A stretch of DNA of 64,000 nucleotides, taken from NCBI RefSeq assembly GCF_905475395.1, contig NC_058339.1, forward strand, positions 7,138,001 to 7,202,000. The letters run 5' to 3'. Each line of letters begins with the position of its first letter. The stretch's first letter is position 1. The stretch is from Chrysoperla carnea. Its lineage: Eukaryota; Arthropoda; Insecta; Neuroptera; Chrysopidae. The position numbers and the translations under genes were made by a program. Shown one piece after another: positions 27,586 to 64,000 of this stretch. Below the pieces are notes generated by a model. That model did not search any database. It had not been told where the DNA came from and was given only the letters and a program-made list of their open reading frames with translations.

Positions 27586-30252
27586 TTAAGTTAATTTTTT
27601 TGCTTCAATTTGTTTATGTCTAGCTAAATGTTTTTCAGAAGTAAATCTTTTTTTACATAAATCACATAAAAATTGTTTGGTTAATTTTTCTCCATTAGTT
27701 CGTTTACGACCACGTTTCTTACTTTCTATTTCCCCGGTATGAATCAATTTATGTTTAGTTAAATGAATTCGCTGAATATATTTTTCACCACAAATATCAC
27801 ATTCAAATGGTTTTTCTCCGGTATGAATTCGTTTGTGATTCTCTAAAGTGATTTTCTGCGTAAATGTTTTATCACAACAATCACAGCTAAATGGTTTTTC
27901 TCCAGTATGAATTCGTCGATGTTTAGTTAAATTATCTTTTATGGTAAATTTTTTATCACAAAAATCACATCCAAATGGTCTTTCACCAGTATGAATCCGT
28001 TTATGTGTAACTACTTCGCTTTTCGCTATAAAAGTTTTATTACAAATATCACATGAAAATGGTCGTTCCCCCGTGTGACTTCGCTTATGCTGATCTAAAT
28101 GATTAGCGTACATAAATGTTTTATTACAAACATCGCATGAAAAAGGTTTTTCTCCAAGATGTTTTCGTTTATGATAAACAAAACTACTTTGATGAGTAAA
28201 TACTTTATCACATTCATCACAAGCAAAAGGTTTTTCTCCAGTATGCATTCTTTTATGTACTCGGAGATTACTTTCCCGAGTAAATGTTTTATCACACATA
28301 TCACAAGAAAGAATTTCTGGAGAATGAATTCGTTTATGATAAACTAAACTGCTATGACGGGTGAATGTTTTACTACAAAAAGTACACGAAAAAATTTTCG
28401 TATGGACTCGCGAATGTCTGGTTAACTTGCTTTGTTGAGTAAACACTTTATCACAAACATCACAAGGAAAATATTTTTTATCGGCATAAATTTGTTTGGC
28501 ATGACGGTAACTTTTTTGATCCGTGGATGTTTTATCATTCGCAAATGGAATTTCTTCAAAATGTTTTTGTTTATGATTAAAATGATTAATTTGATGAGAA
28601 AAACTCTCACCACAAATATCACATAAAAATGGTTTCTCTCCCGTATGTTTTCGTTGATGATTGATCAAACTAGTTTGTTGGGTAAAGGTTTTTTCACAAT
28701 AATCACATGAAAAACGTTTTGCATCCGTATGAAGTCTTTTATGTACAAGTAAACCACCTAGAAGACTAAATTTTTTACCACAAATATCACAAGGAAATGG
28801 TTTTTCCTTAATTGGTTTAGGTTCAACGAAAATAGTTTCTTGTTGAGGTTTTTCGTTTACTTCTGTAGGTTTTTCTTCAGAATAAATTTGTTTTTGTTCT
28901 TCGAAAACAATTTCTGGCTTCATTTCTTCTAATTTAACATCATTATAGTTTCCTGTTGTATTTGCCGCCACTTCAATTGTAGGTTCTACTTCAATCGTAG
29001 GTTCCATTTCAATTGAAGGTTCCACTTCAATCGTAGGTTCTTCTTCGCTGTAATCTTCTTCAACGTAATCATCGGTGTAACTTTCAGCAACATAGTTATT
29101 TTCTTCAACGTAACAACTTTCTTGTTTCGTTTGTTTTAGTTTTTCCTTTTCACAATCTTTCTTTTTATGTTTAATTAAACTAATTCGTTGAATAAATGAT
29201 TTGTTACAGATTTCACAAGAATATGGTTTCTGTCCGGTGTGAATTCGTAAATGATTATCTAAAGTGCACTTTTGTGTAAATGTTTTAAAACAAACGTTAC
29301 ATGAAAATGGTTTTATTCCCAAATGAATTCGTTTGTGTTTAATTAAATTGTTTTTTGTTGTAAATGGTTTATTACAAATATCGCATGGAAATGATTTTTC
29401 TCCATTATGAACAACTTTATTTACAAGTAAACTATTTTGAAGTACAAATTTCTTACCACAAATATTATCCCAAGAAAATGGTTTCACTTCATTATTAATT
29501 TGTTTATTTTCCATAAAAACATTTTCCTGCTTCACTTCACTAATTTGTTCAGTTTTTTCATGAATTAATTTATGTTTAGTTAAACTAATTTGTTGGGAAA
29601 ACGATTTATTACAAACATCACAAGAATATGGTTTATGTCCGGTGTGGTTCCTCACATGTTGATCCAAATTACTTTTCTGTTTAAATCTTTTAAAACAAAC
29701 ATCACAAGCAAATGGTTTTTGTCCGGTATGAATTCGTTTGTGAGTTTCTAAAGTGATCTTTTGCGTAAATCGTTTATCACAGATATCACATGAATATGGT
29801 TTTATTCCAGTATGAACGCGTTTATGTTTGGATAAAGCATCTTGTTTCGTGAATTTTTTTTCACAAAAATTACATGCATATGGTTTGTCCCCAGTATGAA
29901 TCCGTTTATGATCAATTAAATTACAATTTTGAGCAAATGTTTTACCACAGACGTCGCATGCAAAAGGTCTCTCACCAGTGTGCATTCGTTTATGTTGCAG
30001 TAAATGATTTGGATACATAAAACTTTTATCACAAACTTTACACAAAAATGGTTTTTCTCCGGTATGTTTTCGTTTATGATTCCGTACACTGCTTTGGCGA
30101 GCAAACGTTTTACCACATATATCACATAAAAATGGTTTCTCTACTGCTTCGGTTTCTAGTTTTTCATCTTTAATAATCATTTCCACTTTTGGCAGCAATT
30201 CAATGTTCAAATCTTTCGTTGACAGATTGGAATTTTCAGACATTTTATTCAA
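27586..30252 (-). CDS. C2H2 zinc-finger protein, about 24 fingers (copy B)
   Basis: Intronless 888-aa ORF with the same design as copy A: an acidic N-terminus with IKDE (SUMO-type motif), about 11 fingers, an acidic EVEP.IE linker, a second finger block, then KKRGRKRTNGEK and a final degenerate finger without its second His (HKQIEAKK). Fingers with the same helix residues as copy A dominate the first three fingers and the central block. Differences cluster in fingers 4-6 and in the C-terminal fingers (for example KQDALSK against IQNNLTK), so specificity may have shifted there. It lies tail to tail with copy A. It is probably a nuclear regulator with unknown target. Confidence 0.92.
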   Translation of the reverse strand: MNKMSENSNLSTKDLNIELLPKVEMIIKDEKLETEAVEKPFLCDICGKTFARQSSVRNHKRKHTGEKPFLCKVCDKSFMYPNHLLQHKRMHTGERPFACDVCGKTFAQNCNLIDHKRIHTGDKPYACNFCEKKFTKQDALSKHKRVHTGIKPYSCDICDKRFTQKITLETHKRIHTGQKPFACDVCFKRFKQKSNLDQHVRNHTGHKPYSCDVCNKSFSQQISLTKHKLIHEKTEQISEVKQENVFMENKQINNEVKPFSWDNICGKKFVLQNSLLVNKVVHNGEKSFPCDICNKPFTTKNNLIKHKRIHLGIKPFSCNVCFKTFTQKCTLDNHLRIHTGQKPYSCEICNKSFIQRISLIKHKKKDCEKEKLKQTKQESCYVEENNYVAESYTDDYVEEDYSEEEPTIEVEPSIEMEPTIEVEPTIEVAANTTGNYNDVKLEEMKPEIVFEEQKQIYSEEKPTEVNEKPQQETIFVEPKPIKEKPFPCDICGKKFSLLGGLLVHKRLHTDAKRFSCDYCEKTFTQQTSLINHQRKHTGEKPFLCDICGESFSHQINHFNHKQKHFEEIPFANDKTSTDQKSYRHAKQIYADKKYFPCDVCDKVFTQQSKLTRHSRVHTKIFSCTFCSKTFTRHSSLVYHKRIHSPEILSCDMCDKTFTRESNLRVHKRMHTGEKPFACDECDKVFTHQSSFVYHKRKHLGEKPFSCDVCNKTFMYANHLDQHKRSHTGERPFSCDICNKTFIAKSEVVTHKRIHTGERPFGCDFCDKKFTIKDNLTKHRRIHTGEKPFSCDCCDKTFTQKITLENHKRIHTGEKPFECDICGEKYIQRIHLTKHKLIHTGEIESKKRGRKRTNGEKLTKQFLCDLCKKRFTSEKHLARHKQIEAKKLT

Positions 30253-36149: not shown

Positions 36150-38078
36150 ATGTCTCATAAGCGTTCTATTAGTGATAAAGACATTGCTGCTATTCTGGGT
36201 GCAGATAGTGATGATGACTTGGATTTCGATGATGACAGTCTGGAAGACCCCGACTTTGCACTAGATTTCAGTGATTTTGAGGATATAGTTTCAGAGATGG
36301 ATATTGATGAAAATATTGAAAATTCTCCGTCACAAGAAATAATTGACCAAACTAACAATTTAGAAATGGATATTGGTATTGAAAATGCTCCGTCACGAGA
36401 AATAATTGACCAAACCAACAATTTAGAAATGGATATTGGTATTGAAAATGCTCCGTCACGAGAAATAAGTGGCCAAGGGCAACCCACCAAGAAACAACCC
36501 GTTAAAGAAAAGTTACCAAAACTGAACTTGAAATGGAAAAAAAAGAATATTGAATTGAGTGAACAGCAGCTCATGTTCACAGGAAAAAAGACCCTAGGTT
36601 CTGATCTACTTCAGTTGGACACACCAATACAATTCTTTTTCCATTTATTTTCCCTAGGACTTATAAAGAAAATTTCTGAAAAGACTAATTTGTACATTGT
36701 ACAGAAAGATCCCAATAGTACTTTTCGGGTGTCAGAGGAAGATATCAGGCAATTCATCGGTGTGGCATATATAATGTCTCTTGTACAGTTACCTAGAGTT
36801 ACGAATCACTGGAATCCTGTACTTGGAACACCTCTAATAAAGGAGACCATTAGTTTAAACAAGTTTGAAAAAATTCGACAGTCTGTGCATTTCAATGACA
36901 ACAATAAGAATCTTCCTAGAGAACATCCTGACCATGATCAGATATATAAAATACGCCCACTAGTGGAATCTTTGAATGAGGCTTATAGCAAAGTCCCAAT
37001 TGAAGAACACCTTTCTGTGGACGAGCAAATGTGCTCGACTAAATCACGGAACACGTTGAAGAGGTACAACCCCAACAAACCCCACAAATGGGGCTATAAA
37101 GTTTATGTGTTGAGTGGTGTTTCAGGCTTTGCATATAAGACAGAAATTGAAACCGGGAAGGAAAATATCGTTTTAAATGGAGAGCCAGACTTAGGTGCAT
37201 CATCTAACGTTGTCATCAGATTAGCTCGTATGATTCCAAGGCACCAGAATTTTAGGATTTATTTCGATAATTATTTTACGTCCCTTCGTTTATTGGAATA
37301 TCTAGCCATGGAAGGCATTCTCAGTATGGGTACTATTAGAAGGAATAGGATTCCGGATTGTAAGCTGTTATCTGAAAAGATAATGGTGAAAAAGGAAAGA
37401 GGTTATTCGGAAGAATATGTAGCCGATGTCAACGGAATCGATGTTTCAACTGTTGCATGGAAGGACAATAAAGTTGTCACCCTGGCGTCTACCTTTGCTG
37501 GTCAGAAACCCGAAACTGATGTTCGTAGATGGGATAAACACAGTTCAAAATACATAAATATAAAGCGACCCAATGTGGTAGGAGAATATAATCGGCATAT
37601 GGGTGGTGTTGACCTCCTTGACAGCATTATGGGCATTTACAAGATACGTTTGAGAAGCAAACGGTGGCCAATGCGTCTGTTTTACCATTACCTAGATTTA
37701 ACGATGGCCAATGCTTGGATTTTTTATAAAAGAGTCACTAAATACAAAGATCCAAAATCAGCTTGCTTATCATCTGCAGATTTTCGTTTGGAGGTTGCTG
37801 TGACCCTCTGTAAACTGGGTACAAAACCTAGTACATCTACTCGGCGATCACTGGAAAAAGAGATCCAAGCAAAAAAGCACAATGGACCTGCTCAACATGT
37901 GCCTCCAAAAGCGGTTCGCCAAGACCAGATTGGGCACTGGCCACAATGGTCTGATAAAAAAATCAGATGCAAACTTCCAAAGTGCGTAGGATTTACCCAT
38001 AACGTTTGTGAAAAATGCGGTGTCGCATTATGTTACACAAAAACTAAAAATTGTTTTAAAAACTTTCATTTATCGTAA
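36150..38078 (+). CDS. piggyBac-family transposase, open reading frame whole
   Basis: 642 aa, longer than the average piggyBac transposase of about 600. The acidic N-terminus contains a 21-codon direct repeat (NNLEMDIGIENAPSREI, 63-bp step). The DDD catalytic triad is present: D291 (SVDEQMC), D373 (YFDNYFTS) and D488 (HMGGVDLLDS). The insertion-domain words PNKPHKWGYKV are typical. The C-terminal cysteine-rich cross-brace is complete (CKLPKCVGFTHNVCEKCG, then CYTKTKNC). No stop or frameshift was seen, so the protein could be active or co-opted. Terminal repeats and TTAA duplication could not be located with confidence, so I cannot say whether the element is mobile. Confidence 0.93.
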   Translation: MSHKRSISDKDIAAILGADSDDDLDFDDDSLEDPDFALDFSDFEDIVSEMDIDENIENSPSQEIIDQTNNLEMDIGIENAPSREIIDQTNNLEMDIGIENAPSREISGQGQPTKKQPVKEKLPKLNLKWKKKNIELSEQQLMFTGKKTLGSDLLQLDTPIQFFFHLFSLGLIKKISEKTNLYIVQKDPNSTFRVSEEDIRQFIGVAYIMSLVQLPRVTNHWNPVLGTPLIKETISLNKFEKIRQSVHFNDNNKNLPREHPDHDQIYKIRPLVESLNEAYSKVPIEEHLSVDEQMCSTKSRNTLKRYNPNKPHKWGYKVYVLSGVSGFAYKTEIETGKENIVLNGEPDLGASSNVVIRLARMIPRHQNFRIYFDNYFTSLRLLEYLAMEGILSMGTIRRNRIPDCKLLSEKIMVKKERGYSEEYVADVNGIDVSTVAWKDNKVVTLASTFAGQKPETDVRRWDKHSSKYINIKRPNVVGEYNRHMGGVDLLDSIMGIYKIRLRSKRWPMRLFYHYLDLTMANAWIFYKRVTKYKDPKSACLSSADFRLEVAVTLCKLGTKPSTSTRRSLEKEIQAKKHNGPAQHVPPKAVRQDQIGHWPQWSDKKIRCKLPKCVGFTHNVCEKCGVALCYTKTKNCFKNFHLS

Positions 38079-39983: not shown

Positions 39984-41696
<1,713 letters not shown>

Positions 41697-42370: not shown

Positions 42371-43455
42371 TTGTACTTTTTGGGTCAATGGAGTGATGGA
42401 TCGCGACGAAGAAAAAGATCAAAACAAGGAGGAGACGTTCCTAAATTGGCTAGAACTAATTTGGATCGACAATGTTACGATCCACAAACTTCTTCAATCA
42501 TTGATTCACTGTCAGAAGCAATTGGTGGAGAAGAAGGATTTAGCGGGCAAACGAATTTTATACCAACTGATACTTGTGATGAAGGAATTTATGAAAGGCC
42601 TACTGACGAAGTGCAAGAATCGAAAAAGTACATTGACCAAAATATCTTGGTTGGATTTCGAGAAAGAGCTCCGCGGCGAAGAATCATACACGACATTTTT
42701 AAGCGAGATATTACCGGTGACAGTGATAGAGATGTTAAACGAGTCGTACAACAACATTTCGCCGGAACAATGTTCATCGTCGCTGTCCACAACGACCACT
42801 ACCACATCTTGCACGACTGCACCTATCACAGCTACCAGTGCAGATGTGCAAGAATTAACAACTGGCCCACAGACAGATGCAATCGAACGGTTGTTTCAGC
42901 AAGGTCCTACACAATTGAACACTGGCGTAATACAACAGCATATCTTTATAAAGGCGAAAGGTCAATTGTCCACTGCGAGATCGCCGGGCGAACCTGCATA
43001 CGAAGTGGTCAAGTTAGATTTATACCCATTCAAGAACATTCGCAACAAGGAGAAGAAAGACTTTAGGAAGGAAGCGAGGATCAGAACTCAATTGAATATC
43101 TCCTCAATTGCGGACCCTCTACATCGGAAAATAGAGGAAATAATACTAATAATACTAATTGCCTAATAGTAGCCAATCGCATAAACGAAACGGAGAAAAC
43201 CATAGAAGAAAAGGAGATAAAATTCTAACATGGTTAAAGTTACACTTGTCTGCTCGATTGTCTCTAATTTTTAATACATCTATATACCATCAAAGCGAAT
43301 TTGTACATACATACAATAAATCTCATCCATTACTACAGACTGTTTCAAATATATTAGCAACACAAATAATGGATATGTCATTTAATGAATTATATGACTT
43401 TCACAATGAAGCAGAAATATGTATATTTAATGCTCCAAACGGCAATATTTCTGAA
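42371..43455 (+). pseudogene. Endogenous densovirus (Parvoviridae) NS1 fossil, left part
   Basis: Contains a HUH-nuclease-like HYHILHDC followed by a CRC motif, the arrangement found in densovirus NS1 replication proteins, and a following region up to the insertion point at 43455. The fossil continues beyond the 5.5-kb transposon, at 48977. It is broken, with several breaks in addition to the insertion. Its age is moderate, since long stretches remain readable. Confidence 0.75.
43452..43455. repeat. Left 4-bp target-site duplication (TGAA)
   Basis: TGAA directly before the left terminal repeat equals TGAA directly after the right terminal repeat (48977-48980). With both sides inside one viral fossil, the original insertion site is clear. 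Confidence 0.75.
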
Positions 43456-43749
43456 TAGTCCAGTCATTTTAGCTATTTTAAACCCCAATCTGCGGAAAAA
43501 TTGAGCTGAATTTTTGTATACACCTTTATTACGGCATTGTAATGAAGATGTGAAAAATCGACATTGATATCGTGCCGGCTAAAAAAGTTATAAAGGTCAA
43601 AAGGTCACGAAAATCAGTTTTTCGCAAATATCTCGCGATCTATTGCTCGGAGGTCAATACAGGTCATTATAAAAATTGTTTGTCGTGAAATTGTCTATAA
43701 AAAATGTCTCTTGCATTTTGCTGTAGAATTAACCGTTTTCGGAGTAGAG
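43456..43749 (+). repeat. Left terminal inverted repeat (about 294 bp)
   Basis: It is complementary to 48687-48976. Shared words include TAGTCCAGTCATTTTAG, ATCGTGCCGGCTAAAAAAGT, GATTTTCG.GACCTTTTGACC (as complement), GATCTATTGCTC and TTAACCGTTTTCGGAGTAGA. The two arms differ at scattered positions only. Confidence 0.9.
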
Positions 43750-44076
43750 ACTAGAATGCACTCACATACGGTATTGTATACCAAGGCGTACACCCTATTG
43801 CTTTTTATTCATGTTTGTAAGTGTGTTGTTAGTAAAATCTACTACATACACAGACATATAGCACTAGTAATACTAGTATAGACAGGACAATTCGTGCCCG
43901 TGAATGCCTCAAACGACCTCCACTGGTAGGCAGATGTTCCGTATTTCATTGTACCCTTATACCTGCTACTTTTATACCTGCTACTGCCTGTCGGGCTGTA
44001 TTTAGCTCAGTTAAAAATTATTTCTTGAGTGTTAAAGACGTTATTTTAGTAGTATTGCTCTTAAACAGTTTTCATA

Positions 44077-47000
44077 ATGTGTGATACATGTTTTATATGC
44101 AAAGAAGTGTTATCGGATGGTGATGTAGTAGAAGTTAGGCGTGGTCTTCAGACATTAAAAAATGCTAGTATCGCTAGAGGTGATGGTAATATTGAATATT
44201 TAGATACTGTGACTTTTGTAAATGTTCATAGCAATTGTCGTAAAAATTATACGAACACTTTGAGTATAGCGGCTTTTAAACGACGCCAAGAAGAACCGAG
44301 TACATCAATATCTCCACGTAAGAAAAGAATCAGCTCTTTTGATTTCAAAAAATTATGTTTGTTTTGTGGAGAAGAAGCGAGTGAGGTAATTGAGAAAAAA
44401 AAAGAAAAAAAATACAGACGCGTTATTAGAGAAGTGAGTACTCTTTCATTTAAAGACACAGTATTAAAAGCTGCAGAGGCGCGTGGTGATAAATATGGAA
44501 GAAGTGTAAAGGAGCGTGTGAATTTTGAGTATGACTTAGTATCTGTCGAAGCTAAGTATCATGATAAATGTTTCTCAAATTTTTTATTAGTCAGTGGAAA
44601 GGGTGACGCAGGCCGTCCATTGGATGAAAATATTAGAATTGCCATGGAAAATGTTTTTCATTACATAGAAAATAATGACGATTGTCAATTTACATTGGCT
44701 GAGTTAAAAGATATAATGAAAGATTACGTTCCAGATGATAAAACAATAATAAAAAAATTGATTGCTCGATATGGGAATAATATTGTAATTACCACGAAAA
44801 GTAAATCATTAACAATTATTTGCTTTCGAGATACTGCAAGCAATATTTTAACAAATTCGTGGTACGAAAAAAAAAAAGAAAATCATTGTGATGAACGTCT
44901 TCGAATTGTAGAAGCTGCTGCATCAATAATTAAAGAAGATATTCGTTCTGTTACAATTATTCATTACTCATATCCAGCACCAAGTCGAATGTTAGATAAT
45001 ATTAATGACGAAATTCCTAACACTCTAACACATTTCTTGCATCAATTAATTGTGAAGAATAAAAAAGGCCAAACAAAAAAAAATGAAGCAAAATGTACAG
45101 CCATAGCCCATGCTATAATGAGTGTAATGCGTCCACGATCGTTTTCGTCACAGCTGCTACTTAGCCTTTCTGTATTCCTTCATAGAAGATATGCCTCAAA
45201 AAGATTACTAGATGTATTGTCAAGTTTTGGATTTTGTGCTTCATATAGCGATGCTGTGACGTATGAAGTGTCAACTGTTTATCATCCTCAGCCTCGTATT
45301 CTTTCACAGCCTGATGTAATTTTACAGTATGCTGCAGATAATGCAGACATTAATGTTTCCACTATTGATGGGCATAATACTGTGCATATAATGGGTGTAA
45401 TAAAAATCATTTCTCCAAGTAACGCTGTTGTGGCTGATATGCCCATCGTGAAATGTAAGAGTAAACCACGCGCTGATGATTTAGCTACAGTTTCACACGT
45501 ACCTCTTTTAACTTACGAAAATAATGAAGTAGCTGGAATGAGTAAGATTATAGTTGAAGAAATTGATGATAATGTTATTTTAAATGAAGCAATTTGTAGT
45601 AAAGTCGACTTATTGTGGGCATACGCAAAGTGGAGAGATGTCAACGGTCTACCAGGGTGGAATGGATTTTTAGAGAAGCTAACAAAAAATAATAAAGACT
45701 TTACAACATCGACCATAATGTTCCTACCCTTCATTCATCATCCTGCAAGTAATAAAGATACAATTTACACCACATTAGATTGTGCAGTACGTAGTGCCAA
45801 ATCACATGGACAAAATTGTTGCATCATTACTTTTGATCAGCCACTTTACTACAAAGCTCGCGCAATTGTAGCTGCTGCTGATGTTCAATCTGATATATCC
45901 AATGTTATTGTAAGACTGGGTGGTTTTCATATGCTTATGTCGTTTCTTGGATCTATAGGATATATAATGGAAGGAAGTGGACTCAAGGAAGCTCTCAGTG
46001 TTATTTATGCTCCAAATTCAGTAGACAAAATGTTAGATGGCCATGCTTTTGCAAGAAGTGTAAGAGGACATGGACTTGTTAGAGTTGCACTAATGAAGCT
46101 TATATATGATAAATTAACAATCGATCAAAATCTGCAGGAGTTTTTGGATGGTTACATCATGGATATTCTGAGAGGGACGATTTCTTATGATAACATTGAA
46201 GAATCTGAAGATGTTTTGAACGGATTAATACAGTTATTTAATGACGAAGTAGCTAAATTGAAGAACGATGGTCCTACTACTCAGTTATGGCTACAATACA
46301 TTGAAATGATATCAATAGCTAATGATTTCATTCGCGCCGAGAGACTAGGGTTATGGAATGATCATCTTACAAGTGTTCAGCGAATGCTTCCATATTTCCA
46401 TGCATCTGGTCATTTCCTGTATGCTAAATCTGCACATTTATACTTGCAAGATATGTTAGCTTTGAAGGACAAAATGGGACACCAAGACTATATAAACTTT
46501 ACAAAAACATTTGCAGTGAGACGCACAGAAAAATTTAACTGTGGAACCTGGACCGACATGACTATTGAACAAAGTTTGATGAAGTCTATGAAGACTGAAG
46601 GAGGAGTTTCTCGAGGAAGGAGTACTCATGAAAGCGTCTTATGTAAGTGGATATATGGCATGCATGCGACAAATGCAATTTGTGAAGAAATTGAGAAATT
46701 TTGCGACCTTTCATTTGATACCACAGATCAACATGTAGACTCAAGAGATTCACGTATTGAAAGAGATAATACTGACATTAAAAAACTTGTAGAGTGGTTT
46801 GCTTTGCATAATCCTTTTTCAAGTTGCACTCAACTAGTTTCAGTATCAACAGGAATTGTCGGCAATAATAAAATCAACTGTTATAATGCCAAAGAAAATG
46901 GTCTGCAGTCAATTAAAAAAATTATAGGAGTAACATTTGACGAAATTAAATTAAAACGCTCTGACAGAGTTCTTCCATTATCATCAGTAAACACTTCTAT

Positions 47001-48477
47001 CATGGTTCATGACTGCAAGGTAACGATCGATCCGTTATTGCTATTTCAACGAATTAGTTTAAATAAAAAATTTGAGGAAAATCTTAGTGAATATTTACAA
47101 TACGAATTAAGTCCATACCCAACAGCACTATTTGATAATGTTGGCATGAGAAAAACTCAAAAGTCAAAAATATACGACTACTTCGAGCCAATTAATTATC
47201 AAGTAGTTTGTGATGCAACATACATAATCGATGGTGGATTTCTTTTGCATCGTGTCGTATGGCAAAAAAATGATACATTTCATATTGTCATTCACAAATA
47301 TATTAATTATTTATCAAATAATTTCGGAACAAATACTGTTGTCATTTTTGATGGTTACTCTGATAGCAGTAAAAATATCAAAGCTATGGAACAACTAAGA
47401 CGAACCGCTGCTGTTTCTACATCTTGTGAAGTGCACTTCAATGAATCGATGGAAGTTCCTATCAGTCAAGAAAAATTTTTATCTAATCGATTTAACAAAA
47501 GAAAATTAATTGAAATGCTTATTAAGAAGTTCGAAGAAGTTGGTATTGCTACAAGTCAATCACGTGATGATGCTGACGTTTTAATAGTTGAAACAGCGAT
47601 TGAAAAATCAATAAATAATACTACAATTATTGTTGGAGAAGACATAGATCTGTTGGTACTTCTCATAGCACGCACACAAATACTTGATCAACCTACATCA
47701 ATTTTTTTTAAAAAACCAGGAAAAAACAATGTTGAAACAAAAATATACTCGACTGATAGCCTCAACAAATATCCACATTGCAAGAAAAATATTCTGTTTC
47801 TACATGCCATGACCGGATGTGATACAACTTCAGCACTTTTTGGAAAAGGAAAATTGAAAATCATGAAGATGTTTGAAAAAAGACTCGATTTAACCAATTC
47901 TGCAGAAATATTCCAACAAGAAAATTGCTCTCGAGATGTCATTGTCAATGCTGGGACACATTTTCTACTAGCAATGTACGGTGCTCCAAAATCAGAACTT
48001 TCGATAGATAATTACAGATACTGTAGCTTTGCTAAACTAACAAGGCAAAGTACAGCTGTAAAATTTCCATTATTACCACCTACTTCTTCAGCAGCTCAAC
48101 AGCATATTTATCGGGTGTATTATCAAATACAAACCTGGCTAGGAAGAGAAATTGATCCAGAACAGTGGGGTTGGGAGTTAAAAAATAATATACTGCAGCC
48201 AATAACAACTTTATTACCACCAGCACCCGATAATCTACTAAACACAATCTTCTGTAATTGTACAAAAGGTTGCAGCGGCAAATGTGGATGCAGAAAAATT
48301 GGATTAAGATGTTCAAAAGTTTGTGGACATTGCCGTGGCCAGTCATGCTTAAACGCAGAGTCAATCAATGATGAAAATGATGAAGATGTTGATTTAAATA
48401 TAGGAATAAGTCCACTCGACGTTTTGTCAGCAACTGTTGATGACACAGAAACTGAAGACATGGACAATGAATGTTAA
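44077..48477 (+). CDS. 1466-aa transposon protein: Cys-rich N-terminus, PIN/FEN-like nuclease region, C-terminal CXC domain
   Basis: An open frame without introns or breaks. N-terminus: two Cys/His modules (CDTCFICKEVL..NCRKNY, residues 2-60; LCLFCGEEAS..KYHDKCF, about 93-165) separated by a Ser/Pro/Lys linker. The middle 700 residues are helical and unrecognised. Residues about 1049-1260 hold a series of acidic motifs: YIIDGGFLL (1052), VIFDGY (1090), RDDADVLIVETA (1163), VGEDIDLLVLL (1187) and HAMTGCDTTSALFGKGK (1243). This order of Asp motifs ending in a Gly-rich turn is what PIN/FEN/XPG-type 5' nucleases show. Residues about 1393-1428 form a tesmin-like CXC cluster (CNCTKGCSGKCGCRK, then CRGQSC), often DNA-binding. 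It is the only ORF inside 290-bp TIRs, so I infer it is the mobilising enzyme. The family is known to me only as uncharacterised arthropod proteins. Confidence 0.85.
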   Translation: MCDTCFICKEVLSDGDVVEVRRGLQTLKNASIARGDGNIEYLDTVTFVNVHSNCRKNYTNTLSIAAFKRRQEEPSTSISPRKKRISSFDFKKLCLFCGEEASEVIEKKKEKKYRRVIREVSTLSFKDTVLKAAEARGDKYGRSVKERVNFEYDLVSVEAKYHDKCFSNFLLVSGKGDAGRPLDENIRIAMENVFHYIENNDDCQFTLAELKDIMKDYVPDDKTIIKKLIARYGNNIVITTKSKSLTIICFRDTASNILTNSWYEKKKENHCDERLRIVEAAASIIKEDIRSVTIIHYSYPAPSRMLDNINDEIPNTLTHFLHQLIVKNKKGQTKKNEAKCTAIAHAIMSVMRPRSFSSQLLLSLSVFLHRRYASKRLLDVLSSFGFCASYSDAVTYEVSTVYHPQPRILSQPDVILQYAADNADINVSTIDGHNTVHIMGVIKIISPSNAVVADMPIVKCKSKPRADDLATVSHVPLLTYENNEVAGMSKIIVEEIDDNVILNEAICSKVDLLWAYAKWRDVNGLPGWNGFLEKLTKNNKDFTTSTIMFLPFIHHPASNKDTIYTTLDCAVRSAKSHGQNCCIITFDQPLYYKARAIVAAADVQSDISNVIVRLGGFHMLMSFLGSIGYIMEGSGLKEALSVIYAPNSVDKMLDGHAFARSVRGHGLVRVALMKLIYDKLTIDQNLQEFLDGYIMDILRGTISYDNIEESEDVLNGLIQLFNDEVAKLKNDGPTTQLWLQYIEMISIANDFIRAERLGLWNDHLTSVQRMLPYFHASGHFLYAKSAHLYLQDMLALKDKMGHQDYINFTKTFAVRRTEKFNCGTWTDMTIEQSLMKSMKTEGGVSRGRSTHESVLCKWIYGMHATNAICEEIEKFCDLSFDTTDQHVDSRDSRIERDNTDIKKLVEWFALHNPFSSCTQLVSVSTGIVGNNKINCYNAKENGLQSIKKIIGVTFDEIKLKRSDRVLPLSSVNTSIMVHDCKVTIDPLLLFQRISLNKKFEENLSEYLQYELSPYPTALFDNVGMRKTQKSKIYDYFEPINYQVVCDATYIIDGGFLLHRVVWQKNDTFHIVIHKYINYLSNNFGTNTVVIFDGYSDSSKNIKAMEQLRRTAAVSTSCEVHFNESMEVPISQEKFLSNRFNKRKLIEMLIKKFEEVGIATSQSRDDADVLIVETAIEKSINNTTIIVGEDIDLLVLLIARTQILDQPTSIFFKKPGKNNVETKIYSTDSLNKYPHCKKNILFLHAMTGCDTTSALFGKGKLKIMKMFEKRLDLTNSAEIFQQENCSRDVIVNAGTHFLLAMYGAPKSELSIDNYRYCSFAKLTRQSTAVKFPLLPPTSSAAQQHIYRVYYQIQTWLGREIDPEQWGWELKNNILQPITTLLPPAPDNLLNTIFCNCTKGCSGKCGCRKIGLRCSKVCGHCRGQSCLNAESINDENDEDVDLNIGISPLDVLSATVDDTETEDMDNEC

Positions 48478-48686
48478 AAAAAAATTATATACTAAAGTTA
48501 ATTTTTCTGTATTTTTCTGTATTCAAATAAAAAATTATTCACTCGTAAATAAAAAAAAACCTCTTATTACATATTATGGATTATGCCTACGGGGGAAACC
48601 ATGTAAAAAAAAAACGCGCCCTGCATTCTACCTCGAAGGTGGTGAGGAAACGAGTGCATCGTTATAATATAGTCGCTTTCTCGGCG

Positions 48687-48976
48687 CTCTACTCCGAAAA
48701 CGGTTAATTCTACAGAAAAATGCAAGAGACATTTTTTGTAGACAATTTCACGACAAACAATTTTTATAATGACCTTTATTGACCTCTGAGCAATAGATCG
48801 CGAGATATTTGCGAAAAACTGATTTTCGTGACCTTTTGACCTTTATAACTTTTTTAGCCGGCACGATATCAATGTCGATTTTTCACATCTTCATTACAAT
48901 ACCGTAATAAAGGTGTATACAAAAATTCAGCTCACTAGGAATTTTTCCGCAGATAAAACCTAAAATGACTGGACTA
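48687..48976 (-). repeat. Right terminal inverted repeat (about 290 bp)
   Basis: Reverse complement of the left arm, ending AAAATGACTGGACTA, followed by the TGAA target copy. Between the ORF stop at 48477 and this arm lies about 200 bp of non-coding sequence with A-runs. Confidence 0.9.
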
Positions 48977-49637
48977 TGAATACTATTATGATGTTAATCA
49001 ATCGTTAGATATTTTAGATGCACTTGTTAAGTTTCAACATCCGGATGATTACTTAGAATTTTTAAAAAATGTGTACTTAATTTTTGAAAAAAGTTTATCA
49101 AAAAAAAAAAAAAAAAAATACTTTACAAATAATATCAGAACCGTCAGCGGGTAAAACTTATTTCGTCGATGCTATTTTATCCTATAGTTTATGTTTTGGA
49201 TCTATAGGAAATTTTAATAGATATTGTAATTTTCCATTACAAGAAGCAGTTTCTAAAAGAACACTTGTATGGAATGAGCCTAATTGTGAACCAGCTGCCC
49301 ATGATATGATAAAAATGTTATTTGGAGGAGACAATTGCCCAGCTAGAATTAAACACCAACCGGGTGGATTGGTTACTAGGACACCAGTATTCGTAACTTC
49401 AAATAAATAATATTGTATTTCCTACATCAAAAGCGTTTATGGACAGGATGATTACTTACACATGGTAACCTTGTCCATATTTAAAAAAATTTAAATTAAA
49501 ACCTCATCCACATGCAATTATATTTGTTAATGCTAAAATATAACATTAATAAATTATCTAATTTGCCTTTAGTGGAACAAAGTATCATTAATGATAGTGA
49601 GGAAGATGAATATTATGATCCGGATGAAATAATATAA
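48977..49637 (+). pseudogene. Endogenous densovirus NS1 fossil, right part (SF3 helicase)
   Basis: Carries the superfamily-3 helicase Walker A (EPSAGKTYFVD), the FNRYCNFPLQEA stretch, Walker B (LVWNEPN) and the TPVFVTSNK sensor stretch characteristic of parvovirus NS1. Remnants of the C-terminal part (MDRMITYTW-like, then HPHA) follow to about 49637. It is broken, with a few breaks. It is separated from its left part by the 5.5-kb transposon. Confidence 0.88.
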
Positions 49638-51807: not shown

Positions 51808-53647
51808 ATGCATAATGTTGCCAATTGTATACGGACCATAAAATATCCATTTATTCGAGTTGTACATTATGTATGTGTTTCTGAACGCATTATAACCATA
51901 GAGTAGATATTCATCTATAATAAAATCAATTGTCAAAAGTGAAATAGCGCGTATTTTCTAAATAATTTGACATTTAGCTGTGGATAGCGGTAAAATTTGT
52001 AACTAACGTGAAAGCGAGTTTTTAATTTTTGTTTTTTCTATGAAAACGCTTATGAATTGTTTTATAAAAATTGTTATTACACTGGAATAAAGGTAAGTTG
52101 ACTATATCAAATTTTATTTTGTTGAATTTTGTTCCAATCTTCAATTTTTTTTCTTAAATAAGAATGTTGCCATTTGTCTACACTATGCGTATACCGGTAA
52201 TGAAATTCCTACTTGGATAATGTTTACTTCATGTTTACTACATAAGTTTTATTGCATTCTTTTTAACTTTTTTTTGCTTCGTTTTAGCATGTCGCGTTTT
52301 TTGCGGGAAAAGGATATAGAGGCCATGCTTGCAGCGTTAGAAAACGGTGATATTTCTGAATATGAGGAAGATATCGGTGATGAAAATGATATAGATTATT
52401 ATCCGAATGTTCGTGAGTTGTTGCGAGAGTTAGACAGTGAACATGATGAAGAGAACTTAACTGAAGATCAACCACTGCTTGAAGAAGAGGGCATATCAAA
52501 TAGGGTACAGTCTCCGGAAACAGCAGCAGTACTTTTGCCTGGTCAGCCGTTGTCAAGTGCTATTGGTATTGCGGAGTGGAGGGCAAGAAGTAGGGAGCTT
52601 GTTTGGAAAAAAAAAAACCTGGAATGGAATGATGAAGGAATAAAATTTTTAGGATCAACGGAACTCCCTGAAGAAATAGCCCAGTTGGATACACCTTTCC
52701 AATTTTTTTCACAATTTATGAATGAGAGTATTCTCGCTAAAATTGTTGACGAGACATATTTATATATTATACAAAATAACATCTCAAATTGTCCTCCAGT
52801 CACTATCACGGAAATACGACAGTTTTTAGGCATAATAATATATATGTCAGTTTTCCATTATCCCAGTGTAAGATCATACTGGGGTAAGTATGGGTTCCAA
52901 AATATAATGCAGACAATGACTGTAAACAGGTTTGAGAAATTACGATCAGTCATTCACTTCAATGACAATCTCCAACACCGTCCTGTAGGTCATCCACAGC
53001 ACGACCGTCTTCATAAGATAAGACCATTGATACAACATCTGAATAAATGCTTCATGAACGCTGCTCCATTTGAGCAAAGATTATCGTTGGATGAACAAAT
53101 GTGTTCTACTAATGTAGCACATTTTATGAAACAGTATCTCCCGAACAAACCCCACAAGTGGGGATTCAAATTATTCGTACTTTGTTCCCTTTCAGGGTAC
53201 GTCTATACATTTGAGATATATTCTGGAAAACAAGAAGATGAAAATCTTCCAGGAGAACCAGATCTTGGTGTTATAGGAAACACCGTGATTCGTTTATGTC
53301 GTTCAGTACCACGCATGCAAAATCATATCATTTATTTTGATAATTTTTATACATCGGTCCCCTTACTTCATTTTTTGAAAAAACAAGGAATATATGCATT
53401 GGGGACTATCCAGAGAAATCGTCTAGGAAAAAATTGTAAGCTGCCTTCTGTAAAAGATTTTATGAAGGAGACTGTTTCTCGTGGTTCTTATGAAGAGCAA
53501 GTCGCTGATTATGACGGTGTAGATATTTCAGTTACATGTTGGAAAGACAACAAAATAGTTACTTTGGCTTCGACTTATGTTGGCTCTGAACCAGCTAGTA
53601 CAGAGACAAAAAAAAAACTCACCAGGAATCATCGATGTCCATGCTAG
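51797..53647 (+). mobile_element. Third piggyBac-family element, 3'-truncated
   Basis: The left end TTAA followed by CCCTTAAATGCATAATG has the piggyBac layout (TTAA target, CCC terminal repeat), with the inner word AATGTTGCCA.TTGT repeated near 51827 and 52162. The transposase starts at 52289 (MSRFLREKDIEAMLAALENG) and runs 452 codons: acidic N-terminus, QLDTPFQFF, first Asp SLDEQMCS, PNKPHKWGFKLF, and second Asp YFDNFYTS. After TYVGSEPAS the frame changes to unrelated residues (TKKKLTRNHRCPC). The third catalytic Asp (GGVD) and the Cys-rich end are missing, so it is dead. It is closest to the 36 kb element by motif wording, but clearly a separate lineage. Confidence 0.88.
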
Positions 53648-58418: not shown

Positions 58419-61400
58419 ATGGAACATAAACCCGGTCGAAAACCGAATGTTGAGCGCGAAAAATTGATTGAGGCAATCAAAAAACACATTAATTCCCTAG
58501 TAACAAGTGACAACAAAGTCACAAATAAACATGATGCTATCTGGCAGCAGATAGCTGACGAGCTTGACAACAAGCTATTGCCTGAATCATTGTATTCTAT
58601 TGTTGTAAACAACAAATATAATCTAAGAAAAAAAGCGAATGACCAAAGCTTTAACACTTCCGTGTCGAGTGTAGACTCCCGAAACGCATCCGAGCTGCAT
58701 AACTCAACAGAAGATTCTGATGAAAATGGTGTTATTCATTTCACGTATTCTATGAGTTTTGACGAACTGGACAGTTTAATTATCACGGCAACGCGTAAAC
58801 GAAGAAAACTCAATGGTGATTACACTTTTCAGCAAACGGTTTTCAAACCTTATTTTTGGGAGACAATTATGACCGACAAAATTTGGGCTGCCACGCACAG
58901 GAAATGTGGTTATAATTTTAGTAATCATTATGTGTCAAAAACCAAGATGTCAGGATCATTTCAAGGTAATTATTGATATTTTAATGTGAAAAAATTTTTT
59001 TTATCGATTATAATAAAAATTTCTGATGTTTAAGTTTAAATTTTTTCATTAAATTGATAAAAATTTTTTGAAACTGCAATGATTTGATAATAATTATTTG
59101 CTGTTAAATTTTCATTATTTTTATATCGATATCATTACATTTTTTTTGGTATACTCAATTAATAGGGACGAAGTTTTAAACAATCCAGAATTTTTATTCG
59201 AATTTCATTAAATATTAATACAGTTAAATTAACATCAATTGATGAATAGTCCATACTAATCAATAGTCCATAATTAATTAATATTAATTAAGAAATATTC
59301 CATAAAGTACTTTTCAACCATGTTATTTTACAGGTAAATGCAACTGTGGGAGTTTGTTAAAAGCAACTTTTCAAGTTGCTGATGGCGAAGCAACATTTAC
59401 TTGTACAGCTACCCCTAAAGGGAACAAACAATGCAAAAGAACGTATTTACGTAATGAACATCGGAAAAAAGCTGCTGTAAAAATGAAATCTTCGACAACC
59501 GACCAATATCAAGCTGAATTTGCCCTTGAGAAAGGTATGCGCCCAAATGATCCCAAACCTCCACACTTACCGGAGGCTTCTGTTCTCCGAACGGCTAAGT
59601 CTAATCACATCCGTTCAGAATACCATCATATCGATCCATTTATTTCATTGGCAATAATACAAGAGGAAATTTTACCAGGAACTATACATACTTTGTCTTT
59701 TTCTCCGTTTGTGGTACATTATTGGACGAAACATCAACGAGACGTATACCTCAAATATGCTAAAAACGCTCATAGTTGTGTATATATAGATGCTACTGGC
59801 GAGATTTGCCCAAAATTCACAAAGCTTAATAAAGTGCCTACTGCTAACTTATTTTTATACCTTATCGCTATCAATTTTTCCGGTCAACAATTTACTGTAG
59901 GCCAAATGATTTCTGATAAACAAGATACAAGCACTATTTTGAATTTTTGGAGTGAATGGATTAAATATGGGTTTACTCAACCAGCAGAAGTTGTTATGGA
60001 TTCGAATCTAGCACAATTAATTGCGACGATAACAGCTTTTACTCCATTCAAGACAATCGGAACTTATGCTGACGCTTGTTTTTCGAAGTCAACTCCTGAT
60101 TGTTATATCAGAATCGACGTAGCGCACTTTACTCACATTTATGCGAAATTTTTGAGTAAATCAAGCAGACTGGTTCAAGTTTTTTACTTAGCATGTCTGG
60201 GGAAATTGATTTGTATGACCGATAAGGATGAAGCAAGGAAATACCTTAAAGCTATTTTCACTATAGCTTTAAGCAAACGAGCAGGAAAGTTACCTTCGGG
60301 ACGACCGTCACCTTGTCAAGCAGCTAAAGATTTTTTGAGAAATTCAATCACAGGTATACATTATTATCATTAAAAATAATTTCATTAAGATTGAATTTTC
60401 AAGTTATTCAAATATTTTATTCGATTGGAGACTTCCATTAATTAAAATACATTTCTTTATAAATGAACTCAAGTGCCTTTAGAAAAATTGTTCTTTAAAA
60501 TTCTTGTATATCATTTTACAAACTGATCTTATATTATATTTTTCAAAAATTACATTCATTAATCAAAAATTAGATCCAATAAAGTAACAAAGAAATGTGA
60601 CTCGGTCCAAAAAAATTATTGTCAGTTCAAGTAATTTTTTTGATTCAAAAAATCATTTTTCTTTGACACAAGTAAACTTCACGGATGGTAAACTAAAATT
60701 CATATCTCTCATACCTATTTCATAAGAATATTTGTAATTAATTTATTAGTTTAAACTATAGAATTAATACGGGGAATTCCATTTTTAAGATTTGTTGATT
60801 TAAAACACTAGTAGTAATTTAAAAATTAAAAAATTTTTATTTATTCAACTTTTATTCATAAATTTACTAAATATGATAATTTTATTCAATTACTCTAAAT
60901 GTATACGTTTAATGTTGATTGTTTTCGATCAAAGACAAGTTGAAAGATTCAAATTCTGTATTTAGCTTACATATTAGTTCAGTAATATTATAAAATTATT
61001 TATTTATTTATTTTAGGAATGAATGAAGTCGAGAATGATTTAAACGAAGAATTTTCGGACGATCCTGATGATAGTAATGCTGAGAAAGATACTACTGAAG
61101 AAAATTCATGTTATCAGTGGGGTGTAGAAATTTTCGAAGAAGCTAAACGTGATTTAAATGATCACGGTAAAGAAGAAAACGCACACTATAATCCAGAACT
61201 GGTGAAAAAACTACTTCAAGATATCAAAAAAATTCCATTGTGGTCCTGCATTTGTTATAACGATTTTTCATTGGAAGGAAGAATACCAGCTTCAAGTGCG
61301 CCAGTAGAAGGTGAAGTGGGTCGTCTAAAAAAAGGTATCTATAAGCACAAAAATGAACAACGAGTAGATGAGGCTGTAAAGAACCACATAAATTATCTTC

Positions 61401-62551
61401 TTGGCCGAATTAACATAGTCGGTGCTAACATAGATGAAATACTGGAAAATAAGGAAAATAATTCATTGGGCGAGGAAGCTTCTTTGGAGACTGATGACAC
61501 TACTACTCAAGATATTAATATAAGTGAAGAATCGCCCTGTGTTAAAGATTTGGAAATAAACTCTATCAAATCTGAAAAAATTGATGAAGATGATGATAAT
61601 GACAATAAGAAAATTAGTTTGAACGAAAGCAATGAGAGTCTGATATTATCGACTACTCGACAACAAAAATCACCAGTTAACTGTGTTCGTTGTGAGACAA
61701 TTTTGAATTATTGTGATTCTTTCCCGGTAAATGACTCAGACCCTGATTATTCAAAATACCGTCTTTGTTCTCAGTGCAGCAAATTTGGTCGACTTGCAAC
61801 TGAAGAAATGTTAGGGAAGCGAGAGTTTGAAAACTGGAGGGGACTAGGCCAACCAAAAGTAGAGAAAAAATCTCGCTCATTATACATAGGCGATAAATCA
61901 AAAAATATAGTTGAAATGCTTGAATTTCAAAAACCTAAGGGCTTACCAATTTTAAAAAGAGGTGATTCCCCAGATTTGGAAGCCGTTCGCATCAACAATC
62001 GCCGCATAAGTTTATACAATACCTGCCCGTTTGACAGTTTGTATCAATTATTGCTGGTCGCAGCTTGTGATTTTCCCGTTTTTAAAACAAAGGTATAAAA
62101 AAATAGTCAACTTTTTTTTTAAATAAGTGAAATTTACAGAATTTAATAATTGAATTAACCTAATTTGATTTATTTTACAGATTGAAAAGAAGAAAGATAA
62201 TTGTCTTTACAAATCCATTTGTGATGCTTTAAAAACTTCTTTTACTAGTAAGACTTATCAAACTCGAGCAGAAATATTGATGAGGCATTTTAAAGTATTA
62301 AAGTCGATAGCTGATGTAGATTTGATACCGTGTCATACATCAGTAGGAGGCTTTGCTGCCAAACTGTTTGAAAGTGAGTCAAGTTATGCAGAAACTTTGA
62401 CATGTCCTCGAAAATGCCCATCTCGATTTGTATCATTGCCAGTGATGAGCATCCGAGATGATTCATTACATGACATAGATCAAGTGTTTGTAGACCATAT
62501 GGGGAAACGTTATCGGTGCAATGGTAATGGATGTACCGAAAAAACAATAAA
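58419..62551 (+). pseudogene. Spliced transposase-like gene (KDZ-type or MULE-like), cut by a later insertion
   Basis: Exons 58419-58965, 59334-60353, 61017-62092 and 62181 onward, all GT/AG with consistent phase, giving more than 1000 codons. It opens with a basic MEHKPGRKPN and a segment like a MADF/Myb-type DNA-binding domain. Exon 2 begins with a Cys pair (GKCNCGSLL) and a further Cys, then an RNase H-fold-like series: YIDATGEI, VVMDSNLAQ, CYIRIDVAHFTHI and FYLACLGKLICM. Exon 3 has an acidic region, two CxxC pairs (CVRCET, LCSQCSKFG) and NTCPFDSLYQLLLVAACDFP, which resembles the Cys-peptidase (Ulp1/OTU-like) segment attached to some large transposases. Exon 4 ends at 62551 where a second TIR transposon begins. 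The current stop at 62601-62603 lies inside that insertion. The family call is tentative. Confidence 0.65.
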
Positions 62552-64000
62552 TAGCCCAGTCATATTAGGTAAAAAAAGGGGTCAACCTCGGAATGAAAGA
62601 TAATAAGCTGCAAATTGGTATGAACCTTTGTTTTGTCATTCTAAATGTTGTCTCAAAAGTCACAATCGTTATCGTGTCCGCGTCTCAAGATATTCAAGGT
62701 CAAAGGTCACAAAAATCGGTTTTTCGCGAATATCTGGCTTCCTATCGGTTAAATGAGATTTGCATTTATTATAAAAGTTGTAGGCTATAAAATTCCCTAC
62801 AACTTTTGTTTAAACTTTTTTTTCATACGACCAACCGTTTTGAAGGTAGAGCGCGAAGAGTGCACATCGTACAGTCATATACGGCCTAATGCAAGGTCAA
62901 GCGTGAGTTATGGTTATCAGTACGTTATAAAGTCAATTATTTACTTGGAAATTATAATTATTAAACAATGCCTATTATTTATGTACTAACTATTAATTAT
63001 TTATATTTAATTAAAGTAAGTAACTTGATTATTTATATATAATTATTCATATTTAACTATTTAAGTATAAAATATTATTAATTCTGGATTATATATTTTA
63101 GTTTTATTTTAAGTTAACACGACATTATATATCTTTTCTTTAAAACGCGTAAATTTCTCAATACTTATATACCTGGAAATACTTGTCCCTACCCTATGCC
63201 CATTTCTATTCATTGCCGGGACAGATGTTCTATAGTATTCAAGGCCACTCTCTCCACTTTGTATGAGTCAAGATTATTCGTTAGTTTGAAATTGTACCGT
63301 TGCAACTACGGACGTACGGTTTTAAGAGCTATGGCTGATTTGTGTTTTATATGTGATAAGAAACTTTCAGAAGGTGTTTCTGTGAATGTCGTACGTGGTT
63401 TAAAAACTTTAAAAACTGCAAGTATTGAAAGAAATGATGGACATATAGACTATTTAAATACTTTAAGTTCTGTAAATGTGCATTCCGAGTGTCGAAAAGT
63501 GTACACGAGTAAAAATGTTATTATTGCATCAAAACGACGCACAGATGAGAGTGAACCTTCAACGTCAAGTGCACCTCGCAAAAAACGAAATGAAGTCTTT
63601 GATTTTGGAAAGTTATGCTTATTTTGTGGCCAAGAAGCTGATGAAATAGCAGAAAAGAAAAAAAAATTAAAGTATAGACGGACAATAAGTAATGTAAGTA
63701 CTCTTGCATTCAAAGACAACGTAATTAAGAGAGCAGAAGAACGAAACGATTCCTTAGGAGAATTAGTAAAGGAACGTATATATTACGAGTATGATTTGAT
63801 CGCTGCTGAAGCAAAGTATCATACTATTTGCTATACCAACTTTTTAACCCGAGTACCATCTGCAGATAAAATGCCTCGCCAAGATGATCAAGTCACTCAA
63901 GCAATGAAGGAGATTTTTTGTTATATAGAAAATAATGAAGATTCTCAATTTACTTTGAAAGAACTTAAAGATGTCCCTACGGAATACATACCTGACGATA
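62552..64000 (+). mobile_element. Second member of the long-TIR PIN/FEN element family (left part, continues past the window)
   Basis: Starts TAGCCCAGTCATATTAGG, against TAGTCCAGTCATTTTAG at 43456. The inner TIR text follows in the same order: ATCGTGTCC, GGTCAAAGGTCAC, AAAATCGGTTTTTCGCGAAT and CCGTTTTGAAGGTAGAG. Its ORF begins at 63331. It interrupts exon 4 of the spliced transposase-like gene. The right end lies outside, so the target duplication cannot be checked. Confidence 0.83.
63331..64000 (+). CDS. N-terminal part of a second PIN/FEN-element protein (partial)
   Basis: 223 codons, open to the window edge. They align throughout with the start of the 1466-aa protein: LCFICDKKLSEG, VRGLKTLKTASIERNDG, SSAPRKKRNEVFDFGKLCLF and CYIENNEDSQFTLKELKDV. 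By eye about half the residues match, so the two elements are separate lineages of one family. Both Cys/His modules are conserved (CFIC..ECRK; CLFCGQEA..YHTICY). The region at 62604-63330, upstream of it, is TIR and non-coding leader. The rest of the protein is outside the window. Confidence 0.85.
   Translation, partial: MADLCFICDKKLSEGVSVNVVRGLKTLKTASIERNDGHIDYLNTLSSVNVHSECRKVYTSKNVIIASKRRTDESEPSTSSAPRKKRNEVFDFGKLCLFCGQEADEIAEKKKKLKYRRTISNVSTLAFKDNVIKRAEERNDSLGELVKERIYYEYDLIAAEAKYHTICYTNFLTRVPSADKMPRQDDQVTQAMKEIFCYIENNEDSQFTLKELKDVPTEYIPDD

What the first reader, a model, noticed from the sequence alone, without database searches (positions are those of the whole stretch)
43456..48976. Candidate undescribed DNA transposon: 290-bp TIRs around a single PIN/FEN-like protein
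A 5.5-kb unit with long terminal inverted repeats starting TAGTCCAGTC, TGAA on both sides, and one unbroken 1466-codon ORF. The protein has five ordered acidic motifs like a PIN/FEN/XPG nuclease (VIFDGY, DDADVLIVE, GEDIDLLVLL, MTGCDTTSALFGKG), two N-terminal Cys/His modules and a C-terminal CXC cluster. I see no DDE core. If this protein mobilises the element, a FEN/PIN-type nuclease would be acting as a transposase-like enzyme, which is not a mechanism I know for eukaryotic TIR elements. I cannot rule out that a repeat database already lists the family.
Basis: partly seen in the sequence, partly recalled or inferred. Interest (0 to 1): 0.88.

Follow-up and report, generated by a model that had tools for sequence, protein, structure and literature searches.

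The report
Jumping gene with transposase plus repair-type nuclease
This is a recently active cut-and-paste jumping gene, probably in an insect genome, that very likely belongs to the known Academ group, whose single large protein seems to join an ordinary transposase core to a flap-cutting nuclease; it is not a new kind of element, although what the nuclease does is still unknown.

Summary
In detail: a 5,521-bp element (43456-48976) with ~290-bp terminal inverted repeats, TGAA on both sides and one 1466-codon ORF. The C-terminal FEN/XPG nuclease is supported: its seven acidic positions are kept in a second, diverged lineage, and Exonuclease 1 is the best, though weak, PDB profile match. 'No DDE core' is probably wrong: the middle of the protein carries a D421/D424-D587-E831 set kept across both lineages, and some relatives match DUF6589 there. 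The same genome holds at least five related families. Of 21 copies examined, 17 had both ends resolved: 16 have 3-bp and one (the window's) a 4-bp target duplication; paralogous empty sites confirm two. In print, Academ is a DDD/E superfamily whose AcademX branch carries a nuclease and makes 3-4 bp duplications, so I file this as a new AcademX member. Open question: what the nuclease does.

The parts
43452..43455 (.). left target-site duplication TGAA
43456..43748 (+). left terminal inverted repeat, starts TAGTCCAGTC
44077..48477 (+). single ORF, 1466 aa, putative transposase-nuclease
44089..44571 (+). two N-terminal Cys/His modules (C5,C8,H51,C54; C94,C97,H162,C165), probably zinc-binding and DNA-binding (inferred)
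   Evidence: conserved columns
45325..46611 (+). putative RNase-H-like DDE transposase core (residues 417-845; D421/D424, D587, E831; LGGFH H618)
   Evidence: invariant in 30 of 30 lineage-1 proteins and kept in lineage 2; DUF6589 match in some relatives; no fold available
47194..47886 (+). FEN/XPG-type nuclease domain (residues 1040-1270; D1052, D1092, D1165, D1167, D1189, D1191, D1249)
48253..48348 (+). C-terminal CXC (tesmin/TSO1-like) cysteine cluster, residues 1393-1424
   Evidence: several relatives carry the source name 'Tesmin/TSO1-like CXC domain-containing'; absent in the lineage-2 rows shown
48687..48976 (-). right terminal inverted repeat
48977..48980 (.). right target-site duplication TGAA
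62552..64000 (+). 5' part of a second element of the same kind (family B), cut by the window end; its coding match starts at about 63331; left flank AAA is its 3-bp TSD

Best explanation
The element is an autonomous-looking member of the AcademX branch of the Academ superfamily of DNA transposons. The N-terminal Cys/His modules probably bind the TIRs (inferred). An RNase-H-like DDE core in the middle (D421 or D424, D587, E831) makes the end nicks and joins the ends to the target with a 3-bp, rarely 4-bp, stagger. The duplications and empty sites are shown; the fold and chemistry are inferred. The C-terminal FEN/XPG domain is a structure-specific nuclease. I think it most likely cuts the non-transferred strand or the 5' flap at the transposon-donor junction, which would be a division of labour like that of TnsA and TnsB in Tn7 (inferred, about 1 in 3). 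So the FEN domain is an accessory nuclease fused to a DDE transposase, not the transposase itself.
For: TIRs and ORF. All 120 listed relatives match both the middle-domain and the nuclease profile, some partially; this is biased, because the search scored residues 300-1440 together, only the best 120 of 300 are listed, and 29 of them are in the profiles. D421, N422, D424, D587 and E831 are invariant in 30 of 30 lineage-1 proteins. In 18 lineage-2 proteins, D587 is kept in 15 of 15 and E831 in 18 of 18 rows with a letter, and DN.D is readable in 6 of the 7 rows with letters there. DUF6589 was matched by 10 of 30 members at E<=0.1; P0049 reaches 4.2e-8, above the cut-off. Nuclease: the seven FEN positions in lineage 2 are D1052 17/18, D1092 17/17, E at 1165 14/14, D1167 14/14, D1189, D1191 and D1249 13/13. 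Exonuclease 1 is the top PDB hit of two profiles, with acidic motifs in register in the one shown. XPG_N E=0.0036 and 5_3_exonuc_N E=0.006 on a consensus, both below cut-off. TSDs: 16 of 17 resolved copies 3 bp, 1 of 17 4 bp. Paralogous empty sites for two copies show one copy of TAG and of GAT. Recent activity: family C copies at 5 further loci are 99.97-100% identical to L014, one of them with an extra 383-bp insertion. In print (passages seen): Academ is a DDD/E superfamily (PMC9587614); AcademX makes 3 or 4 bp TSDs and encodes a nuclease (PMC10045372); curated bivalve Academ elements average 5,565 bp (PMC10294476).
Against: No named Academ sequence was available, so membership was not tested by homology; the AcademH/AcademX paper (Kojima 2020) is not held. 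The window ORF on its own matches no Pfam family and no PDB sequence. A profile of the middle region finds no DDE transposase in the PDB, and its consensus hits no DDE family in Pfam, only DUF6589 just below cut-off and spurious families. The PDB matches of the nuclease are weak (E 0.05-0.15 for the best two chains), the nuclease consensus alone does not find EXO1, and in Pfam it scores an unrelated family, TCAD9 (0.0035), as well as XPG_N. No structure could be predicted.
Confidence: 0.88

Rival explanations
1. One reading: the FEN/PIN nuclease is itself the transposase, with no DDE chemistry.
For: The nuclease acids are as strictly kept as any residue in the protein. Neither a profile nor a consensus of the middle region hits a known DDE family or structure. 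No structure is available.
Against: A separate D-D-E set and surrounding motifs (DN.D...G.NT.H, T[FY]D, LG.FH, D.T.EQ) are kept between two lineages. A constant 3-bp TSD with TIRs is usual for DDE strand transfer (general knowledge). In print, Academ counts as DDD/E.
Confidence: 0.04
2. It is a DDE + FEN transposon of a separate, unnamed superfamily that resembles AcademX only by convergence.
For: Sequence homology to a named Academ could not be tested. A gall-aphid survey with Repbase and Dfam libraries found only 58 Academ copies, none full-length (PMC9783078, passages).
Against: The same DDE + nuclease combination, the same 3-4 bp TSD and a similar length. Academ is reported in all arthropods surveyed (PMC6327564, passage), in whitefly (PMC9143410, passages) and in moths and braconid wasps (PMC5704228 citing Zhang et al. 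2016, passages).
Confidence: 0.08
3. The nuclease part is a helper kept on its own: the many 5'-deleted copies with an open nuclease frame are a functional nuclease-only element class.
For: Nine loci at 51-58% identity cover 300 or more of the 341 nuclease residues, 6 of the 9 without a stop in the matched stretch. None of the 9 shows a full middle domain in the capped list (90 of 164 candidates scored). The three examined have TIRs and 3-bp TSDs.
Against: The three examined are 99.6% identical; L024 and L028 lack internal stretches present in L023, starting 422 and 436 bp from the left end. Against the L024 ORF, L023 differs by 4 synonymous and 4 non-synonymous codons (one a stop) and L028 by 2 and 7 plus a gapped codon, some differences being shared; no purifying selection is visible, though the numbers are small. 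They look like young deletion derivatives.
Confidence: 0.04

Closest known systems
AcademX branch of the Academ superfamily (Kojima 2020, not seen; described in PMC10045372)
   Same: DDE-type transposase (here by sequence pattern) with a nuclease, 3 or 4 bp TSDs, TIRs, about 5.5 kb, insects
   Different: No difference found in what could be tested. Homology to a named member was not testable. Whether families A-E are in Repbase was not checked.
AcademH
   Same: Same superfamily in print
   Different: AcademH carries a helicase and makes 9-10 bp TSDs. No helicase match was seen here.
FEN1/EXO1/XPG nuclease family
   Same: Seven acidic positions in order; FDG, EAD/DAD, D.DLL and GCD motifs aligned with EXO1
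   Different: Fused to a transposase-like core and a CXC cluster. In lineage 1 the usual E of the third motif is D.
Kolobok lineages E, D, P and H with accessory nuclease or helicase (PMC9587614, passages)
   Same: DDE transposase with an added nuclease or helicase
   Different: Different nuclease folds, different superfamily
Tn7 TnsA/TnsB (recalled)
   Same: Possible division of labour between a DDE enzyme and a second nuclease
   Different: TnsA has a restriction-endonuclease-like fold and is a separate protein. This is a functional analogy only.

Membership tests
AcademX (Academ superfamily) | 3 or 4 bp target-site duplication | tested here: met
   16 of 17 resolved copies 3 bp and 1 of 17 4 bp; paralogous empty sites for two. 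Ends of 4 of the 21 copies examined (L019, L025, L026, L027) were not resolved.
AcademX (Academ superfamily) | encodes an XPG-type nuclease | tested here: met
   Seven acids in two lineages and weak EXO1 and XPG_N matches. PMC10045372 says only 'nuclease'; that it is XPG-type is recalled.
AcademX (Academ superfamily) | DDD/E transposase core | tested here: inconclusive
   Conserved D-D-E pattern in two lineages and DUF6589 in some relatives, but no match to a known DDE family and no predicted fold.
AcademX (Academ superfamily) | sequence homology to named Academ transposases | not testable with these tools
   No Repbase or Dfam sequence was at hand; the source paper is not held.
AcademX (Academ superfamily) | TIRs and element length near 5.5 kb | tested here: met
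   5,521 bp here; families B and C 5.9-6.5 kb; published bivalve Academ mean 5,565 bp.
AcademH | helicase and 9-10 bp TSD | tested here: not met
   No helicase match for the window ORF or among 30 members scanned; TSDs of 3-4 bp.
FEN/XPG nuclease family | seven conserved acids in order (D, D, E/D, D, D, D, D) | tested here: met
FEN/XPG nuclease family | PIN/FEN fold and flap cleavage | not testable with these tools
Biochemistry is needed.

The most novel reading that the evidence does not exclude
A eukaryotic transposon whose FEN/XPG domain is an obligatory second catalytic centre: the DDE core makes and joins one strand while the FEN domain cuts the other strand or flap. This would be a single-protein counterpart of Tn7's two-nuclease transposase.
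Probability: 0.3. Interest if true: 0.65.

Novelty: new member of a known kind. Interest (0 to 1): 0.25.

Why it matters
The element is not a new kind. It is, however, a good test case for an open question about Academ elements: why does a cut-and-paste transposase carry a flap or repair-type nuclease? This genome holds intact, near-identical copies with clean 3-bp duplications, so the role of the nuclease could be tested directly by mutating each set of acids. It also suggests a meaning, part of a transposase core, for a Pfam family still labelled 'unknown function' (DUF6589).

Tried and rejected
The Pfam scan of the window ORF found nothing. PDB by single sequence found nothing. The nuclease consensus alone found only an unrelated PDB chain. 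PDB by middle-domain profile gave only spurious hits. A genome search with DUF6589 found nothing in the own genome or in the 14 controls, so it says nothing. E755 was first considered as the third catalytic acid; it was dropped in favour of E831 because E755 is replaced in lineage 2. The reading that nuclease-only copies are maintained by selection was weakened, on few differences. The Academ source paper was sought under two ids in three calls and is not held. Eight paper searches were made; in the listings seen, partly cut at 20 papers, I recognised none devoted to this family, and no held paper contains the word DUF6589. L050 was fetched but not analysed.

Full report
What is there. The window (GC 31%) contains a 5,521-bp element at 43456-48976. 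Its terminal inverted repeats are about 290 bp long; a 248-nt stretch of them is 98% complementary, which is not a chance match (no shuffle control was run), and the outer ~50 bp differ by indels. TGAA stands on both sides. One ORF of 1466 codons fills the inside.

Copies in the same genome. The window lies in contig C3 of a 559-Mb genome. A search with the protein gave 36 matches, some of them pieces of one copy; only 32 of 974 candidates were scored. I fetched 20 further copies besides the window copy. They form family A (window and C5:72.72 Mb, 99%; the second has a stop and a frame break in the matched protein), family B (4 loci, 61% protein identity, one starting in the window at 62552), family C (7 loci, 42%), two longer copies L021 and L022 (40%, each with one stop in the match), a ~55% family (E) of which only shortened copies were seen, and other broken copies. 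Family C copies at five further loci are 99.97-100% identical to L014, one of them with an additional 383-bp insertion; the other three B copies match L010 at 99.85%. The elements have therefore moved very recently.

Ends and target duplications. Termini share TA[G/A]NCCA (TAGTCCAGTC, TAGCCCAGTC, TAATCCAGTC, TAGACCAG). Of 21 copies (the window's and 20 others), 17 could be resolved at both ends. The window copy has a 4-bp duplication (TGAA); the other 16 have 3 bp: A TAA; B TAG, TAT, AAA, ATT; C GAT, TAA, TAA, TAT, ACC, AAT; L021 AAA; L022 GTT; E TTA, ATA, CGA (L021 and L022 read by eye from the printed ends). L019 lacks a recognisable right end, and L025, L026 and L027 were not resolved. Paralogous empty sites for L010 (C6:463300, C5:73789253; 99-100% identical) and for L014 (C6:7621957, C3:3820839; 90-93% identical) carry one copy of TAG and of GAT at the junction.

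The nuclease. No single-sequence search finds it, but profiles do, weakly. Human Exonuclease 1 is the top PDB hit (E 0.05 with 77 sequences; 0.14 with 8), with FDG, EAD, D.DLL and GCD in register; the one other chain up to E=10 is unrelated. A consensus matches XPG_N (0.0036) and 5_3_exonuc_N (0.006), both below their cut-offs, and the unrelated TCAD9 equally well (0.0035); in the PDB the consensus alone finds only an unrelated chain. The strongest evidence is a second lineage. A family B copy (L010) sits inside another element whose ORF proved to be a distant relative with its own family (186 proteins, 120 listed). In 18 of those 120, picked for length, the seven acidic positions of FEN/XPG nucleases are kept in nearly all rows that reach them, and the position that is D1165 here is E there (14 of 14), as in classical FEN1/EXO1 (recalled). 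I take PIN/FEN-type as well supported.

The transposase core. The middle region (about 417-845) contains QxxxDNxDxN..T.DG.NT.H.MG, TFDQPLY, RLGGFH and W[ST]DMTIEQ. D421, N422, D424, D587, H618, D827 and E831 are invariant in 30 of 30. In lineage 2, D587 (15/15), H618 (16/16), D827 and E831 (18/18) are kept, and DN.D is readable in 6 of the 7 rows with letters there, 11 rows having none. E755, invariant in lineage 1, is not kept. The pattern (strand then D, strand then D, helix with E) fits an RNase-H-like DDE core; this is inference, since no structure could be made and no known DDE family or structure was matched. Ten of 30 members match Pfam DUF6589 at E<=0.1, the best 4.2e-8 and above cut-off. 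Of 8 lineage-2 proteins scanned, 4 of them chosen because they were already flagged, 6 match at E<=0.1 and 2 are above cut-off. All 120 listed homologs match both the middle and the nuclease profile, some partially, in a listing biased towards proteins that have both.

Comparison with what is known. PMC9587614 (passages) lists Academ among superfamilies with a DDD/E transposase. PMC10045372 (passages) states that AcademH makes 9-10 bp TSDs while AcademX makes 3 or 4 bp, and relates this to the helicase and the nuclease that they encode. PMC10294476 (passages) gives a mean Academ length of 5,565 bp in bivalves and finds Academ largely bivalve-restricted among the molluscs studied. Academ is reported in all arthropods surveyed (PMC6327564, passage), with 42 full-length copies in whitefly (PMC9143410, passages), with only 58 copies, none full-length, in a gall aphid (PMC9783078, passages), and in moths and braconid wasps (PMC5704228, passages citing Zhang et al. 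2016; that paper itself not seen). The defining paper (Kojima 2020) was not held; that its nuclease is XPG-type is recalled. The AcademX features that I could test were met or, for the DDE core, inconclusive without a structure; direct homology to a named Academ was not testable.

How it works. Shown: TIRs, 3(-4)-bp duplications, paralogous empty sites, recent spread, conserved catalytic-type residues in two domains. Inferred: the DDE core cuts and joins; the FEN domain acts on branched intermediates, most plausibly on the non-transferred strand or 5' flap. An alternative is processing of the donor break.

Side analysis. Shortened copies that retain the nuclease frame but have lost the middle are common: nine loci cover 300 or more of 341 residues at 51-58% identity, 6 of the 9 without a stop in the matched stretch (118 of 397 candidates scored), and none of the nine has a full middle domain (90 of 164 candidates scored). 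Three were examined: they are 99.6% identical, two of them lack stretches present in the third that start 422 and 436 bp from the left end, and all three have TIRs and 3-bp TSDs. Codon differences are few and show no excess of synonymous change. They look like ordinary deletion derivatives.

Insertion context. The window copy lies next to, and by eye inside, a densovirus-like remnant: the frame on its right matches Parvo_NS1 (E 2.2e-12), while two ORFs upstream match nothing in Pfam. The flanks were looked at separately and not joined.

Noticed in passing
window 48978-49410, and possibly the left flank up to 43455: Endogenous densovirus-like remnant: the ORF at 49084-49410 matches Parvo_NS1 (E 2.2e-12). 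By eye the transposon has inserted within the remnant. Described only, flanks not joined.
   Followed up: partly
window 62552-64000: Start of a second element of the same kind (family B). Together with copies at C3:7212308 and C3:7260434 this makes a cluster of four such elements within about 80 kb.
   Followed up: yes
L010 7692-9499: A distant relative (lineage 2: DDE-like core plus FEN domain, no CXC in the rows shown) hosts a family B insertion. Listed relatives include insects, spiders and Hydractinia.
   Followed up: partly
C2, C5, C1, C3 loci listed (for example L024, L028, L023): Numerous 5'-deleted derivatives keep an open nuclease frame. In two of the three examined the deletions, relative to the third, start 422 and 436 bp from the left end, as abortive gap repair might leave them.
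   Followed up: partly
window 21706-24474 (+) and 27586-30252 (-): Two long, very similar C2H2 zinc-finger ORFs in opposite orientation, by eye an inverted duplication.
   Followed up: no
window 36150-38078, 40784-41389, 52220-53647: piggyBac-type transposase ORFs: the first matches DDE_Tnp_1_7 (E 6.4e-72); the other two look alike by eye.
   Followed up: no
window 59354-62098: Two ORFs close together that look by eye like a broken transposase-type protein; no Pfam match.
   Followed up: no
L016, around element position 5910-5922: A 383-bp insertion with a 13-bp overlap at the junction inside an otherwise near-identical family C copy.
   Followed up: no
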